From contig VGHJ01000015.1 in assembly GCA_016868295.1 (NCBI GenBank), positions 1 to 54,907 on the forward strand: DNA of 54,907 nt, given 5' to 3'. The notes below the pieces were generated by a model. The model saw only the letters and a list, made by a program, of their open reading frames with translations. It did not search any database and was not told the DNA's origin. The stretch's first letter is position 1; each line of letters starts with the position of its first letter. Below, piece by piece: positions 4,365 through 54,764 of this stretch. This DNA is from Betaproteobacteria bacterium. Lineage in GTDB: Bacteria; Pseudomonadota; Gammaproteobacteria; Burkholderiales; Rhodocyclaceae. A program made the translations under genes and the position numbers.

Positions 4365-5668
4365 CAGTCGCGCAGCGCCATCAGCGCCTCGATGTCGCTG
4401 ACGGATTTGGGCGCGGCGTCGGTGAGGATCTCGCAGCCGTCGGCGGTGACGAGGGCGTTGTCCTCGATGCGGATGCCGATGTTCCACAGCGCCTGCGGCA
4501 CGTCGTCGGCAGCGCGGATGTAGCAGCCCGGCTCGACGGTGAGCGTCATCCCGGCGGCGAGCGGCCGCCATTTGTCGCCGACCTTGTACTCGCCGGCGTC
4601 GTGCACGTCCATGCCGAGCCAGTGGCCGGTGCGGTGCATGTAGAAGCGGCGATAGGCGCCGGATTCGATGACACCATCGAGGTTGCCGGTGAGGAGCCTG
4701 AGATCCAGCATGCCCTGCGCCAGCACGCGCACGGCCGCTTCGTGCGGCGCGTCCCAAGGCTGGCCCGGCCGGATCTGCGCGATGGCCGCGTCCTGGGCGG
4801 CGAGGACGAGCTGGTAGACATCGCGCTGCGCCGGCGAGAACTTTCCGCTCACGGGAAAGGTGCGCGTGATGTCGGCGGCGTAGGAGTCGACCTCGCAGCC
4901 GGCATCGATCAGCAGCAGATCGCCGTCCCGCAGGGACTGACTATTGCCGACGTAGTGCAGCACGCAGGCGTTGGCGCCGCCGGCGACGATGGGCGAATAG
5001 GCCGGCGCCTGCGCGCCGCTGCGGCGGAACTCGTGCATCAGCTCCGCCTCGACCTCGTATTCGAAGCGGCCGGGCGCCGTGGCGCGCATGGCGCGGCGAT
5101 GCGCCGCGGCGGAGATGCCTGCGGCACGGCGCATGTCGGCGATCTCGTGCGCGTCCTTGACGAGGCGCATCTCGTCGAGCTCGACGCGCACGTCGCGGAT
5201 CTCGGCCGGCGCGTGCGTGCCGCCGCGCACGTTGGCGCGCACGCGGTTGAGCGCGGCGACGACGCGGTCGTCCCAGCCGGCGTCGTGTCCCATCGAGTAG
5301 TGCAGTGCGGGCTGGCCGGCGAGCAGATCGGCGAGCTTTTCATCCAGGCTGCCGATGGGAAAGGCCTCGTCGAAGCGGAAGGCTTCGCGCGCCGCCTCGG
5401 GTCCGTGGCGGAAGCCGTCCCAGACTTCCCTTTCGGCATCCTTCTCGCGGCAGAAGAGCAGGGCGCGCGGCGCGTCGCCGGCGACCAGCACGACGCAGGC
5501 TTCCGGCTCCGCAAAGCCGGAAAGGTAGTAGAAATAGCTGTCGTGCCGATAAGGGTAGTGCGAGTCGCGGTTGCGCACGCGCTCGGGGGCGGTCGGGACT
5601 ACCGCGATGCCGCGACCCATGGTCCGCAGGAGGCGGGCGCGGCGGTCGACGAAGGCCTGGATGTCCAC
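4364..5668 (-). CDS. pepP: Xaa-Pro aminopeptidase P
   Basis: Dinuclear-metal cytosolic peptidase that removes an N-terminal residue preceding proline. The 434-residue protein has the N-terminal AMP_N domain (about 1-170) and the pita-bread catalytic domain. Metal ligands are visible in LLIDAGCEVDSYAADITRTF (two Asp), HRTGHWLGMDVHD (His), LTVEPGCYI (Glu) and IRIEDNALVT (Glu). The start is GTG at 5668, giving MDIQAFVDRRARLL as in homologues. It is coupled to ubiH downstream. One copy of the 24-bp motif lies inside it (4922-4945), encoding part of NSQSLRDG. Confidence 0.95.
   Translation of the reverse strand: MDIQAFVDRRARLLRTMGRGIAVVPTAPERVRNRDSHYPYRHDSYFYYLSGFAEPEACVVLVAGDAPRALLFCREKDAEREVWDGFRHGPEAAREAFRFDEAFPIGSLDEKLADLLAGQPALHYSMGHDAGWDDRVVAALNRVRANVRGGTHAPAEIRDVRVELDEMRLVKDAHEIADMRRAAGISAAAHRRAMRATAPGRFEYEVEAELMHEFRRSGAQAPAYSPIVAGGANACVLHYVGNSQSLRDGDLLLIDAGCEVDSYAADITRTFPVSGKFSPAQRDVYQLVLAAQDAAIAQIRPGQPWDAPHEAAVRVLAQGMLDLRLLTGNLDGVIESGAYRRFYMHRTGHWLGMDVHDAGEYKVGDKWRPLAAGMTLTVEPGCYIRAADDVPQALWNIGIRIEDNALVTADGCEILTDAAPKSVSDIEALMALRD
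4922..4945 (-). repeat. 24-bp bipartite motif, copy 1 (inside pepP)
   Basis: GCCGT (4922-4926), eight bases, then GACTGACT and ATT. On the minus strand it reads AAT-AGTCAGTC-N8-ACGGC. It lies in pepP coding sequence and uses AGT and CAG TCC codons atypical of the GC-rich surroundings. Confidence 0.75.
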
Positions 5669-5699
5669 TGGCTGAAACCGGTCGTTGAGGTTGAAACGA

Positions 5700-6383
5700 T
5701 TATAGCGCCGCGAGCCGGCGGTCGAGCTCGGCCAGGCGTTCGGGCGTGCCGATGTCCAGCCACAGGCCGTTATGCCGCTCGCCGCCGACCCTGCCGGCGT
5801 CCATGGCGACGCGCAGCAGCGGGGCGAGCTTCGCCTTGGCGCCCCGGGCGATGCCGGCGAAGAGCGCCGGGTCGTAGAGGCCGATGCCGGAGAAGGTGAA
5901 CTTCCGCGCGCCCTCGGCGGTCACCCTGCCGCCTTGCAGCGCAAAGTCGCCGCGCTCGTGATGCGGCGGGTTGGGCACCAGCACGAGATGGGCGAGCAGG
6001 CCGCGCGCGCGCAGGTCGCCGGCCAGCGGCGCCAGGCGCGCATAGTCGTAATCGCAGGCGATGTCGCCGTTGATGACGGCGAAGGGCGCGTCGCCGAGCA
6101 GGGGCAGGGCGTGGGCGATGCCGCCGGCGGTTTCCAGCGCCTCGCCCTCGGGGGAGTAACGGATGCGCGCGCCGAAGCGCTCTCCATCGCCCAGTGCCGC
6201 CTCGATCCGCCGGCCGAGGTGGGCGTGATTGATGACGATGTCGCGCAGGCCGGCGCGCACCAGCGCCTCGATGTGCCGGACGATGAGCGGTTGGCCGCCC
6301 GCCTCCAGCAGCGGCTTCGGCGTGGCGTCGGTGAGCGGCCGCATGCGCTCGCCGCGGCCGGCGGCGAGGATCATGGCCTTCAT
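5700..6383 (-). CDS. murU: N-acetylmuramate-1-phosphate uridylyltransferase
   Basis: Nucleotidyltransferase of 227 residues with the sugar-nucleotide signature [20 protein letters not shown] at residues 6-25 and the catalytic-metal aspartate in [11 protein letters not shown]. It converts MurNAc-1-phosphate to UDP-MurNAc in the peptidoglycan-recycling shunt that bypasses MurA. Assignment to MurU rather than a generic glucose-1-phosphate transferase rests on its partner: the ATG at 6383 overlaps the stop of amgK (TGATG), the kinase supplying its substrate. This pair beside lptD is the arrangement known from Pseudomonas. Confidence 0.9.
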
Positions 6384-7378
6384 CAGAAGGTGTACCCCAC
6401 GGCGGGGGCGCGGTTCTCCAGCTCGTCGAGCAGGCGCGCCAGCGGTGCCAGTTGCGCGTAGCGCGTGGCGACGTGGCGCACGTAGCCGAGGAAACGCAGC
6501 GTGTCGGCAAGGTATTTCGGCTTGCCGTCGCGGTAGTTGAGGCGGGCGAAGATGCCCAGCACCTTGAGGTGGCGCTGCAGGCCCATCCATTCGAAGTTGC
6601 GGTAGAAGTCGCCGAAGTCGGCGTCCACCGGCAGGCCGGCGCGGCGCGCCTTCTCCCAGTAGCGCACGGCCCAGTCGATGATGCGCTCCTCCTCCCAGCT
6701 GATGAAGGCGTCGCGGAAGAGCGAGACGACGTCGTAGGTGATGGGGCCGTATACCGCGTCCTGGAAATCCAGCACGCCGGGATTGTCCTCGCACACCATC
6801 AGATTGCGCGGCATGTAGTCGCGGTGCACGAAGACGCAGGGCTGGGCGAGGACGTTGCGCAGCAGCAGCACTTCCATGTGCTCCAGCGTAGCGCGCTGCT
6901 TCTCGCTCAGCGGCGTGCCGAGATGGCGGGCGACGTACCACTCGGGAAACAGCCCGAGTTCGCGCCGCAGCAGCGCTTCGTCGTAGGGCGGCAGCGCATC
7001 CGGCCGGCTGGCCAGCTGCCACTTGACGAGGGCGTCGAGGGCATCGCGAAAGAGGTCGCCGGCATTTGTCTCGTTGAGGGCGTCGATGTAGAGCGTGCTG
7101 CCGAGATCGCTCAGCAGCAGCAGGCCGCGCTCGAGGTCCTGGGCGAGGATGTCCGGCGCGTGCACCCCGGCGTCATGCAGCAGGCCGGCGACCCGCACGA
7201 AGGGTCGGCAGTCCTCGTGCTCGGGCGGGGCGTCCATGACGATGCGGGTTGTGCCGTCGTCGAGGGTGACCCGGTAATAGCGCCGGAAGCTGGCGTCGGC
7301 CGAAGCCGGCTCGATGGAATGGGGTCTGCCGGGGAAGAGGCCGGCGAGCCATTGATTGACCATTTCGAGGCGCAGCAT
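6383..7378 (-). CDS. amgK: Anomeric N-acetylmuramate/N-acetylglucosamine kinase
   Basis: Aminoglycoside-phosphotransferase-fold kinase of 331 residues that phosphorylates MurNAc at the anomeric position during cell-wall recycling. The catalytic loop is [14 protein letters not shown] (His-Arg-Asp, Asn) and the metal-binding segment is [15 protein letters not shown]. The start at 7378 gives [15 protein letters not shown]; a longer open frame to 7882 crosses into antisense lptD and was rejected. It is coupled to murU downstream and divergent from lptD. An extended -10 (TGCTAGAAT) sits 41 bases upstream. Confidence 0.92.
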
Positions 7379-54096: not shown

Positions 54097-54734
54097 GCAG
54101 CCGCGAAGCCATTCTCGGCAGAGTCCGTACAGCGCTCGGGAGAAAAGTCAGTCCCGTCGACACGGCGCACATTGACGCCCACATCGCCGCCCACCCGGTC
54201 GGCCTGCAGCCGCCGCGCGACTGGGAACCGGAGCTGCGCTTCCGCGCCCGCGCCGAGGCGCTCGCCAGCACGGTGGAGAAAGTGTCGAGCCTGCATGCGG
54301 TGCCCGGCGCCGTGGCGCGCTACCTGGTCGTGAACAAGCTGCCCACCGGCGGCGTCTGCTGGCCCAGTTTGCGCTGCCTCGACTGGATCGGCGCCGGCCT
54401 CGGCATGGAAGACCGCCCGGCGCGCGGCGACGATCTCGTCGGCGTCACTGGCTGCTTCTGCGCCGTCGCCGAGACCGGCACGCTGATGCTCCTCTCCGGC
54501 GCCGACACGCCGGCCGCGGCGAGCCTGCTGCCCGAGACCCACATCTCCATCGTCGACACGGCGCGCATCGTGCCCTTCATGGAAGACGCCTGGGCGCTCG
54601 CGCGCGCCGAGCGCGGCCGGCCGCCGCGTTCAGTGAATTTCATCTCCGGCCCCTCGCGCACCGCCGACATCGAGCAGACCGTGACCATGGGCGCGCACGG
54701 GCCGTATCGGGTGCACATCATCCTCGTCGGCTGA
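54093..54734 (+). CDS. lutC: L-lactate utilisation protein LutC
   Basis: A 213-residue LUD-domain protein. Conserved features are VTGCFCAVAETGTLMLLSG and the C-terminal SGPSRTADIEQTVTMGAHGP, the family signature for the substrate/cofactor pocket. It completes the lutABC operon, overlapping lutB by four bases (ATGA). Copy 9 of the 24-bp motif is inside its N-terminal coding region, encoding RKVSPVDTA. No terminator is seen after the stop; copy 10 of the motif begins seven bases later. Confidence 0.94.
   Translation: MSSREAILGRVRTALGRKVSPVDTAHIDAHIAAHPVGLQPPRDWEPELRFRARAEALASTVEKVSSLHAVPGAVARYLVVNKLPTGGVCWPSLRCLDWIGAGLGMEDRPARGDDLVGVTGCFCAVAETGTLMLLSGADTPAAASLLPETHISIVDTARIVPFMEDAWALARAERGRPPRSVNFISGPSRTADIEQTVTMGAHGPYRVHIILVG
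54143..54166 (+). repeat. 24-bp bipartite motif, copy 9 (inside lutC)
   Basis: AAAAGTCAGTC (54143-54153), eight bases CCGTCGAC, then ACGGC (54162-54166). It is in sense orientation in lutC and uses AAA GTC AGT codons. Confidence 0.8.
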
Positions 54735-54740
54735 CTTGCC

Positions 54741-54764
54741 GCCGTCCCGCAGCGACAGACTTTT
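54741..54764 (-). repeat. 24-bp bipartite motif, copy 10 (downstream of lutC)
   Basis: GCCGT (54741-54745), eight bases CCCGCAGC, then GACAGACTTTT (54754-54764), one mismatch in the core. It is intergenic. Confidence 0.65.

What the first reader, a model, noticed from the sequence alone, without database searches (positions are those of the whole stretch)
4922..54764. A 24-bp bipartite motif occurs ten times with fixed spacing
GCCGT-N8-GACTGACTTTT (or its complement AAAAGTCAGTC-N8-ACGGC) is at 4922, 16686, 23737, 30216, 34437, 41122, 43587, 45451, 54143 and 54741. The two halves are always eight bases apart, and the inner bases favour a GGCGAC-like sequence. The 10-mer GGGACTGACT alone appears seven times, where about 0.1 would be expected by chance in 55 kb. 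Six copies are in genes of unrelated families, in different reading frames, using AT-richer codons than nearby; four are intergenic. Two (43587, 45451) share one duplicated segment, so nine are independent. The density, about one per 5-6 kb on both strands, resembles DNA-uptake sequences, Chi-like or nucleoid-organising sites rather than a transposon. No such motif is known to me for this group.
Basis: seen in the sequence. Interest (0 to 1): 0.82.

Follow-up and report, generated by a model that had tools for sequence, protein, structure and literature searches.

The report
Split DNA-uptake-like motif in Desulfobacillus
A 25-letter two-part DNA word is scattered in hundreds of copies through an environmental betaproteobacterial genus, is kept in place by natural selection and differs by dialect in a neighbouring genus, as expected of a tag by which bacteria recognise and take up DNA of their own kind, a trick described so far for two bacterial families.

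Summary
All ten copies are where stated; the window's genome holds 173 exact copies of GCCGT-N8-GACTGACTTTT, 0 for the reversed control. The genus is that of Candidatus Desulfobacillus denitrificans. The motif is 25 bp, CGCCGT-N8-GACTGACTTTT, and only a spacer of eight occurs. At orthologous sites the fixed bases are 95% identical, the spacer 74%, flanks 84%. In motif-poor relatives the few coding sites compared hold other sequence without a 25-bp gap, so these copies are not insertions. No strong strand skew, no hairpin covariation, no RAYT transposase in several carriers. A sister genus has a dialect, CGGCGT-N8-GRCTGACTTTC, with the same spacing. This is the profile of DNA uptake sequences (DUS/USS), which a 2025 paper says are known only in Neisseriaceae and Pasteurellaceae. 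Uptake and receptor are not shown: the Pfam 'ComP_DUS' pilin occurs in 62 of 67 family genomes and does not track the motif, and comEC is present in some motif-poor genomes too. Verdict: most likely a third, bipartite uptake-sequence system; a new variant of a known kind.

The parts
4922..4945 (+). motif copy, 1 mismatch, inside an aminopeptidase P-like (M24) gene 4364-5668 (-)
16686..16709 (-). exact motif copy inside an M3 peptidase gene 15618-17672 (-)
23737..23760 (+). exact motif copy, intergenic, abutting the 3' end of a GAPDH gene 23760-24758 (-)
30216..30239 (+). exact motif copy a few bases beyond the 3' end of a CbbQ-like gene 30246-31046 (-)
   Evidence: my gene caller put it in an over-extended frame 27926-30286
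34437..34460 (+). motif copy, 2 mismatches, inside an inositol-monophosphatase-family gene 33530-34534 (-)
41122..41145 (-). exact motif copy just beyond the 3' end of a ribose-5-phosphate isomerase A gene 41148-41873 (-)
43587..43610 (+). motif copy, 2 mismatches, in the lipoyl-domain part of a dihydrolipoyl-dehydrogenase-like gene 41894-43675 (-); one of a duplicated pair
45451..45474 (+). motif copy, 2 mismatches, in the lipoyl-domain part of an acyltransferase (E2) gene 44247-45563 (-); second of the duplicated pair
54143..54166 (-). exact motif copy near the start of a LUD-domain (LutC-like) gene 54093-54734 (+)
54741..54764 (+). motif copy, 1 mismatch, a few bases beyond the stop codon ending at 54734
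13230..13253 (-). weak match, 3 mismatches (possible degenerate copy or chance)
27372..27395 (-). weak match, 3 mismatches (possible degenerate copy or chance)

Best explanation
The motif works as a self-recognition tag for natural transformation: a bipartite DNA uptake sequence. A surface DNA-binding protein, probably a type IV minor pilin, would bind free DNA that carries CGCCGT-N8-GACTGACTTTT, whose two conserved halves lie about 16 bp apart centre to centre, about one and a half helical turns. The pilus would pull the DNA in, ComEC would carry it across the inner membrane, and recombination with the resident allele would keep the tag and spread it at coding and intergenic places. Shown here: genome-wide excess, fixed spacing, narrow boundaries, constraint on the fixed bases at orthologous sites, no motif-sized insertion gaps in the coding orthologues compared, no strong strand skew, spacing somewhat more even than random, dialects in a sister genus, comEC in nearly all carriers examined and a minor-pilin cluster. 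Inferred: that a receptor binds it, that the receptor is a pilin (a FimT/GspH-like or PilE-like minor pilin is the first candidate), and that it raises uptake.
For: Excess: 173 exact copies in 2.67 Mb, 0 control; 249 in Ca. D. denitrificans; by the wider dialect pattern 273-378 copies in 8 of 12 genus genomes examined, the other four having 153, 140, 39 and 3. A narrow 25-bp logo. Only N8 among spacers 0-20. Constraint: 115 ungapped orthologous comparisons from 45 sites: fixed bases 95.0% identical, inner eight 73.9%, flanks 84.3%; at most one change at the 17 fixed positions in 84%, against 48% of 5,233 random ungapped placements in the same alignments; 4 of 45 sites were never so kept. Third codon positions within fixed bases change in 8.0% (n=75) against 21.7% in flanks (n=1,227), nine coding sites: selection on DNA. 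Origin: against motif-poor G064 8 of 8 comparisons (5 distinct targets) are ungapped; G071 shows a 3-base gap at its one site. Dialect with the same spacing in genus g66, 86-223 copies in 4 of 6 g66 genomes. 43 of 77 copies on the GC-skew-positive strand. Spacing more even than random, P=0.02, no gap under 597 bp. comEC in 12 of 13 motif-rich genomes examined. Passages of PMC1626085 list such properties for USS and DUS: somewhat regular, in coding and non-coding DNA, strong consensus, gap test for insertion.
Against: No uptake or binding shown. PF16732 (ComP_DUS) is in 62 of 67 family genomes and scores lower in carriers (33, 46 and 40 bits in G000, G010, G127) than in many genera without the motif (over 75 bits), so no ComP orthologue tracks the motif. 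comEC is also in motif-poor G071, G074, G234 and G097. Density is about one per 5.8 kb, against close to one per kb for known uptake sequences (PMC1626085 passage). No closely spaced pairs in the G000 sample, while both known kinds have some. The excess of perfect over one-mismatch copies holds in G010 (53:26:9) but not in G000 (31:32:15). Motif comparisons are gapped more often (28 of 143) than random placements (487 of 5,720); 20 of the 28 are at non-coding sites, and at the intergenic place near window 30.2 kb G074 shows gaps of 3-21 bases, which alone would also fit insertion. Depletion in mobile DNA was not tested.
Confidence: 0.75

Rival explanations
1. Sites for a cytoplasmic DNA-binding protein that organises, segregates or repairs the chromosome (nucleoid, Chi- or KOPS-like).
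For: Hundreds of copies, sequence-constrained, more even than random.
Against: No strong skew: 43 of 77 copies on the GC-skew-positive strand (a proxy for the leading strand on four contigs); 17 fixed bases is long for such sites (general knowledge); G071 of the same genus has 3 copies of the wide pattern and G064 has 11 of the 11-base core genome-wide and none with up to 3 mismatches in 53 kb, odd for a basic chromosome function. Whole-genome strand totals do not test skew against replication, and no plot against origin and terminus was made.
Confidence: 0.14
2. REP/RAYT-type or other mobile short element, or a decayed repeat family.
For: Dispersed, high-copy, short; Y1 transposase genes in 7 of 13 genomes searched, the window's own included (1 copy); gaps at some intergenic sites.
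Against: No Y1_Tnp in motif-rich G072 (one contig), G061, G068, G127, G080; coding orthologues without the motif show no 25-bp gap; fixed bases conserved while the spacer drifts; no pair covariation in the possible hairpin; 47 of 77 copies inside genes by a crude caller.
Confidence: 0.04
3. Regulon of a global transcription factor or a transcription-termination signal.
For: Intergenic copies sit close after stop codons (7 of 10 scored tandem cases with midpoint within 17 nt of a stop; the four in the window by reading).
Against: 0 of 12 scored intergenic copies in divergent (promoter) regions, 19% expected by position (only about 2 expected, so weak); most copies inside genes; both orientations; no hairpin covariation.
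Confidence: 0.05

Closest known systems
Neisseriaceae DNA uptake sequence (DUS, GCCGTCTGAA and dialects; receptor ComP)
   Same: Many copies in coding and non-coding DNA, strong consensus, clade-wise dialects with a constant core (passages); the DUS core CTG is also inside this motif, and GCCGT opens both.
   Different: Here the word is split: GCCGT and CTGA stand ten bases apart, where the DUS has them adjoining; lower density; no ComP orthologue that tracks it; no close pairs in the sample; another betaproteobacterial lineage.
Pasteurellaceae uptake signal sequence (USS; Hin and Apl types; receptor predicted to be PpdA/ComN)
   Same: Motif of several parts (core plus spaced AT-rich parts), substitutional origin by gap test, two dialects (passages).
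   Different: Unrelated sequence, higher density, AT-rich flanking parts rather than a GC-rich first half; receptor here unknown, though the GspH-like pilin beside the PilE-like one has a family of prepilin peptidase-dependent proteins as its best NCBIfam match, far under that model's cut-off (45 of 158 bits).
REP elements with RAYT transposases
   Same: Short, dispersed, high copy.
   Different: No Y1 transposase in several carriers, mostly intragenic, no supported hairpin, no motif-sized gaps in coding orthologues.

Membership tests
DNA uptake sequences (DUS/USS) | Large genomic excess of a short word with strong consensus | tested here: met
   perfect copies outnumber one-mismatch copies in the G010 sample but not in G000
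DNA uptake sequences (DUS/USS) | Both strands, in genes and between genes | tested here: met
   (47 coding and 30 intergenic of 77 by a crude gene caller that errs for 54143 and 30215)
DNA uptake sequences (DUS/USS) | Arises by substitution or recombination, not by insertion of an element | tested here: met
   coding comparisons (few independent sites: 5 distinct targets in G064, 1 each in G074 and G071); intergenic alignments are often gapped and do not decide
DNA uptake sequences (DUS/USS) | Clade-wise dialects with conserved core | tested here: met
DNA uptake sequences (DUS/USS) | Competence machinery in carriers | tested here: inconclusive
   comEC in 12 of 13 motif-rich genomes but also in 4 of 6 motif-poor ones; minor pilins present; comEA, dprA, pilQ not searched
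DNA uptake sequences (DUS/USS) | Surface receptor binds the word; the word raises uptake or transformation | not testable with these tools
   needs binding and uptake assays
Neisserial DUS/ComP system | ComP orthologue that tracks the motif | tested here: not met
   PF16732 in 62 of 67 family genomes, lower scores in carriers; in the genus loci the hit lies beside other prepilin-like frames
REP/RAYT | Cognate RAYT (Y1) transposase in carriers | tested here: not met
   none in G072, G061, G068, G127, G080; one in G000 and G010, three in G065
REP/RAYT | Palindromic hairpin, extragenic | tested here: not met
   no covariation, mostly intragenic
Chi/KOPS | Strand skew relative to replication | tested here: not met
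   43 of 77 on the GC-skew-positive strand, a proxy; not plotted against origin

The most novel reading that the evidence does not exclude
A third lineage of self-specific DNA uptake, in environmental Betaproteobacteria such as those of an anammox reactor and groundwater, with a bipartite word read by a receptor other than ComP. Bolder still, and much less likely: the word is the neisserial DUS split in two (GCCGT and CTGA) with ten bases, one helical turn, put between the halves, which would make the two systems kin.
Probability: 0.65. Interest if true: 0.9.

Novelty: new variant of a known kind. Interest (0 to 1): 0.82.

Why it matters
[quoted passage not shown] A third case in environmental bacteria, with close relatives that carry, vary or lack the word, would give the comparison that the field lacks: receptor hunting by co-variation with dialects, tests of selection against drive, and a marker for gene flow (and mis-binned contigs) in metagenomes.

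Tried and rejected
Rejected: transposon or REP origin; a known RNA family in the window (0 Rfam matches) or an RNA hairpin; tRNA-linked (0); strongly skewed recombination or segregation site; promoter motif (weak numbers). ComP as receptor by Pfam name: looked good in the genus (12 of 16) and failed the family control (62 of 67). comEC as separator of carriers from non-carriers: not discriminating. Competence decay in motif-poor genomes: in a comEC tree G074, G071, G234 and G097 have the longest or among the longest end branches, but root-to-tip lengths overlap or nearly overlap those of carriers and no control gene was run, so not claimed. A first comEC tree used wrong reading frames and was discarded. 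A first ortholog script gave 0 rows and stopped with an error, probably a BLAST scoring setting; repeated with other scores. A look for an own word in G071 found a REP-like GTAGGCTGGG repeat. Names of G handles other than those are not known. The strand-versus-origin plot was not made (place lists are cut).

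Full report
Observation. GGGACTGACT occurs seven times, as stated. The window is contig 15 of a 2.67-Mb genome, which holds 173 exact copies, 91 forward and 82 reverse, none for the pattern read backwards.

Organism. The same-genus genome G010 has one contig of 3,145,360 bases, the length of AP021857.1, the complete genome of Candidatus Desulfobacillus denitrificans, and the same counts and listed places as that record (G304). 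The NCBI lineage is Betaproteobacteria incertae sedis; record titles of other carriers say Rhodocyclaceae, Rhodocyclales, Sulfuritalea or just Betaproteobacteria or Pseudomonadota.

Anatomy. Copies with up to two mismatches (78 from 451 kb of G000, 88 from 400 kb of G010) give C-GCCGT-SYYGCNGG-GACTGACTTTT: one more fixed C in front, preferences in the inner eight (chiefly G at motif positions 10 and 13), and little outside (a weak T before it in G000, a weak C after). Only a spacer of eight occurs among spacers 0 to 20 (40 of 40). The inner positions that could pair as a hairpin show no covariation beyond shuffled columns. The G010 stretches were picked for forward copies, so its logo, not its density, is used.

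Selection. In local alignments between nine motif-bearing genus members, 115 ungapped comparisons from 45 query sites show 95.0% identity at the 17 fixed positions, 73.9% in the inner eight and 84.3% in 60-bp flanks; the target is within one mismatch of the consensus in 67%, 29% expected from flank identity. At most one change at the 17 positions is seen in 84%, against 48% of 5,233 random ungapped placements in the same alignments; 59% of targets still read as the motif in one dialect or another by a strict pattern, and 4 of 45 sites were never kept. Change per position follows the logo: 0-4% at positions 1-6 and 15, 0-3% at 17 and 19-23, 10% at 16 and 18, 18-22% at the last two T, 6% and 11% at inner positions 13 and 10, 23-41% at the other inner positions. 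For nine coding sites of G000, third codon positions within the fixed bases change in 8.0% (n=75), in flanks in 21.7% (n=1,227), in the inner eight in 33% (n=39). The comparisons are not independent (reciprocal pairs, shared ancestry). 28 of 143 were gapped, more often than random placements (487 of 5,720), and were left out; 20 of these 28 are at non-coding sites by the gene caller and 8 at sites it calls coding (two of them the mis-called 30215), with gaps of 3 to 12 bases, none the size of the motif.

Origin. Against G064, which has few copies (11 of the 11-base core genome-wide), 8 of 8 comparisons are ungapped, with 5 distinct target sequences, 7 of the 8 query sites called coding: other sequence stands where the motif is in relatives. 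G071 gives one site (4 queries) with a 3-base gap. G074 gives one site (4 queries) ungapped and four queries from the intergenic place near window 30.2 kb with gaps of 3 to 21 bases. The coding cases speak for substitution or replacement, not insertion; the intergenic ones do not decide. Passages of PMC1626085 describe the same gap test for USS; passages of PMC2397512 argue that many neisserial DUS come by recombination and often face gaps.

Distribution in the genome. By a crude codon-usage gene caller 47 of 77 copies are coding and 30 intergenic (it misses genes: 54143 lies in a LUD-domain gene). 38 of 47 coding copies share one frame offset, sense or antisense. Of the 12 intergenic copies in gaps up to 500 bp between called genes, 10 are between tandem genes, 2 convergent, 0 divergent (random positions: 71%, 10%, 19%), and 7 of the 10 tandem ones have their midpoint within 17 nt of a stop codon; the other 18 were not scored. 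The four intergenic copies in the window lie next to a stop codon by reading. Spacing is more even than random (CV 0.78, P=0.02; shortest gap 597 bp). 43 of 77 copies are on the GC-skew-positive strand in 20-kb surroundings, 45 of 77 in 40-kb ones. Strand totals by the wide pattern are near equal in carriers, though a 12-base core is 102/71 in G010 and 70/93 in G065.

Distribution among genomes. In 297 family genomes CGSCGT-N8-GRCTGACTTT has 273-378 copies in 8 of the 12 genus members included, 153 (G073), 140 (G066), 39 (G074) and 3 (G071) in the rest, 86-223 in four of six g66 genomes (1 and 0 in the other two), 24 in one of two g23 genomes, and 0-3 elsewhere. The 11-base core GACTGACTTTT is in all 16 genus genomes held, 1 to 272 copies. 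The 39 of G074 may be foreign: several listed copies share inner octamers and equal or near-equal spacings with AP021857, while its 19-kb stretch orthologous to the window has none with up to one mismatch; not tested further. In 399 genomes of the order (at least 80% complete) 8 have a match, only G000 and G394 (9 copies, another family) more than one.

Dialects. G127 of genus g66 has CGGCGT-N8-GRCTGACTTTC (34 anchored copies in 134 kb); G161 and G214 of g66 have CGGCGTACCACCACGACTGACTTT-like copies (5 and 1 with up to three mismatches in 63 and 20 kb). Within the genus, G061 and G068 mix TTTT with TTTC and GA with GG (17 and 8 anchored copies). Thus the halves and the spacing stay while single letters shift, as with DUS dialects (passages of PMC3630211).

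Machinery. comEC is found in 12 of 13 motif-rich genomes (not in G161, 85% complete), in four of six motif-poor ones, and in G023. PF16732, ComP_DUS, is in 12 of 16 genus genomes but also in 62 of 67 family genomes and with higher scores in many without the motif. In G000 the hit is a pilin beside a GspH-domain one and another prepilin-like protein. A 2025 paper predicts a minor pilin, PpdA/ComN, as the USS receptor (passages of PMC12616744), so the GspH/FimT-like protein is a fair first candidate here; that is inference, and its match to the corresponding NCBIfam model is far under the cut-off.

Literature. [quoted passage not shown] No paper in the held library joins 'DNA uptake sequence' with Rhodocyclaceae or 'DNA uptake sequences' with Burkholderiales and 'natural transformation' from 2015 on. 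None of the 8 papers that hold GACTGACTTTT is on this by title. Of wider searches I saw only the listed part: 20 of 358, 20 of 48, 15 of 94, 9 of 9; no title listed reports uptake words in this lineage. The Desulfobacillus paper has no occurrence of competence, pili, repeat or transformation. No paper was read whole; those cited were seen as passages.

Judgement. The genomic features tested mostly fit an uptake sequence, with the reservations above (density, no tracking receptor, comEC not discriminating); the two functional features, binding and uptake, cannot be tested here.

Noticed in passing
window 45537-45660: A ~120-bp dispersed repeat with inverted parts (CTGCCTCC...GGAGGCAG; CCCCTTTCC...GGAAAGGGG); many roughly 79-91% matches in the listed genus genomes, five further full or partial matches in the 451-kb G000 sample.
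   Followed up: partly
window 43437-43675 and 45301-45539: 239-nt duplicate at 92%: lipoyl-domain parts of the E3-like and E2 genes.
   Followed up: partly
window 105-184 and 41816-41895: Two 80-nt copies (75%) of a repeat made of CAGTTGCCAGTTG-like units.
   Followed up: no
L137-L141, L229-L234 (G071): Motif-poor G071 has its own REP-like word GTAGGCTGGG, 17 copies in 205 kb against 0.2 expected.
   Followed up: no
L210-L214 (G394, another family of the order): Motif copies (10 with up to 2 mismatches in 65 kb picked near hits), six of them in the first 15 kb of a 290-kb contig: transfer, mis-assembly or a remnant.
   Followed up: partly
L040 (G312), L032 (G309): Bins titled Phycisphaerae and Thermomonas hold 4 and 2 motif copies (the four on one contig); perhaps mis-binned Desulfobacillus DNA, so the motif could flag contamination.
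   Followed up: partly
window motif copies; AP021857.1 loci L015-L017: GCCGT and CTGA, the halves of the neisserial DUS, stand in order in this motif with ten extra bases between; may be chance.
   Followed up: no
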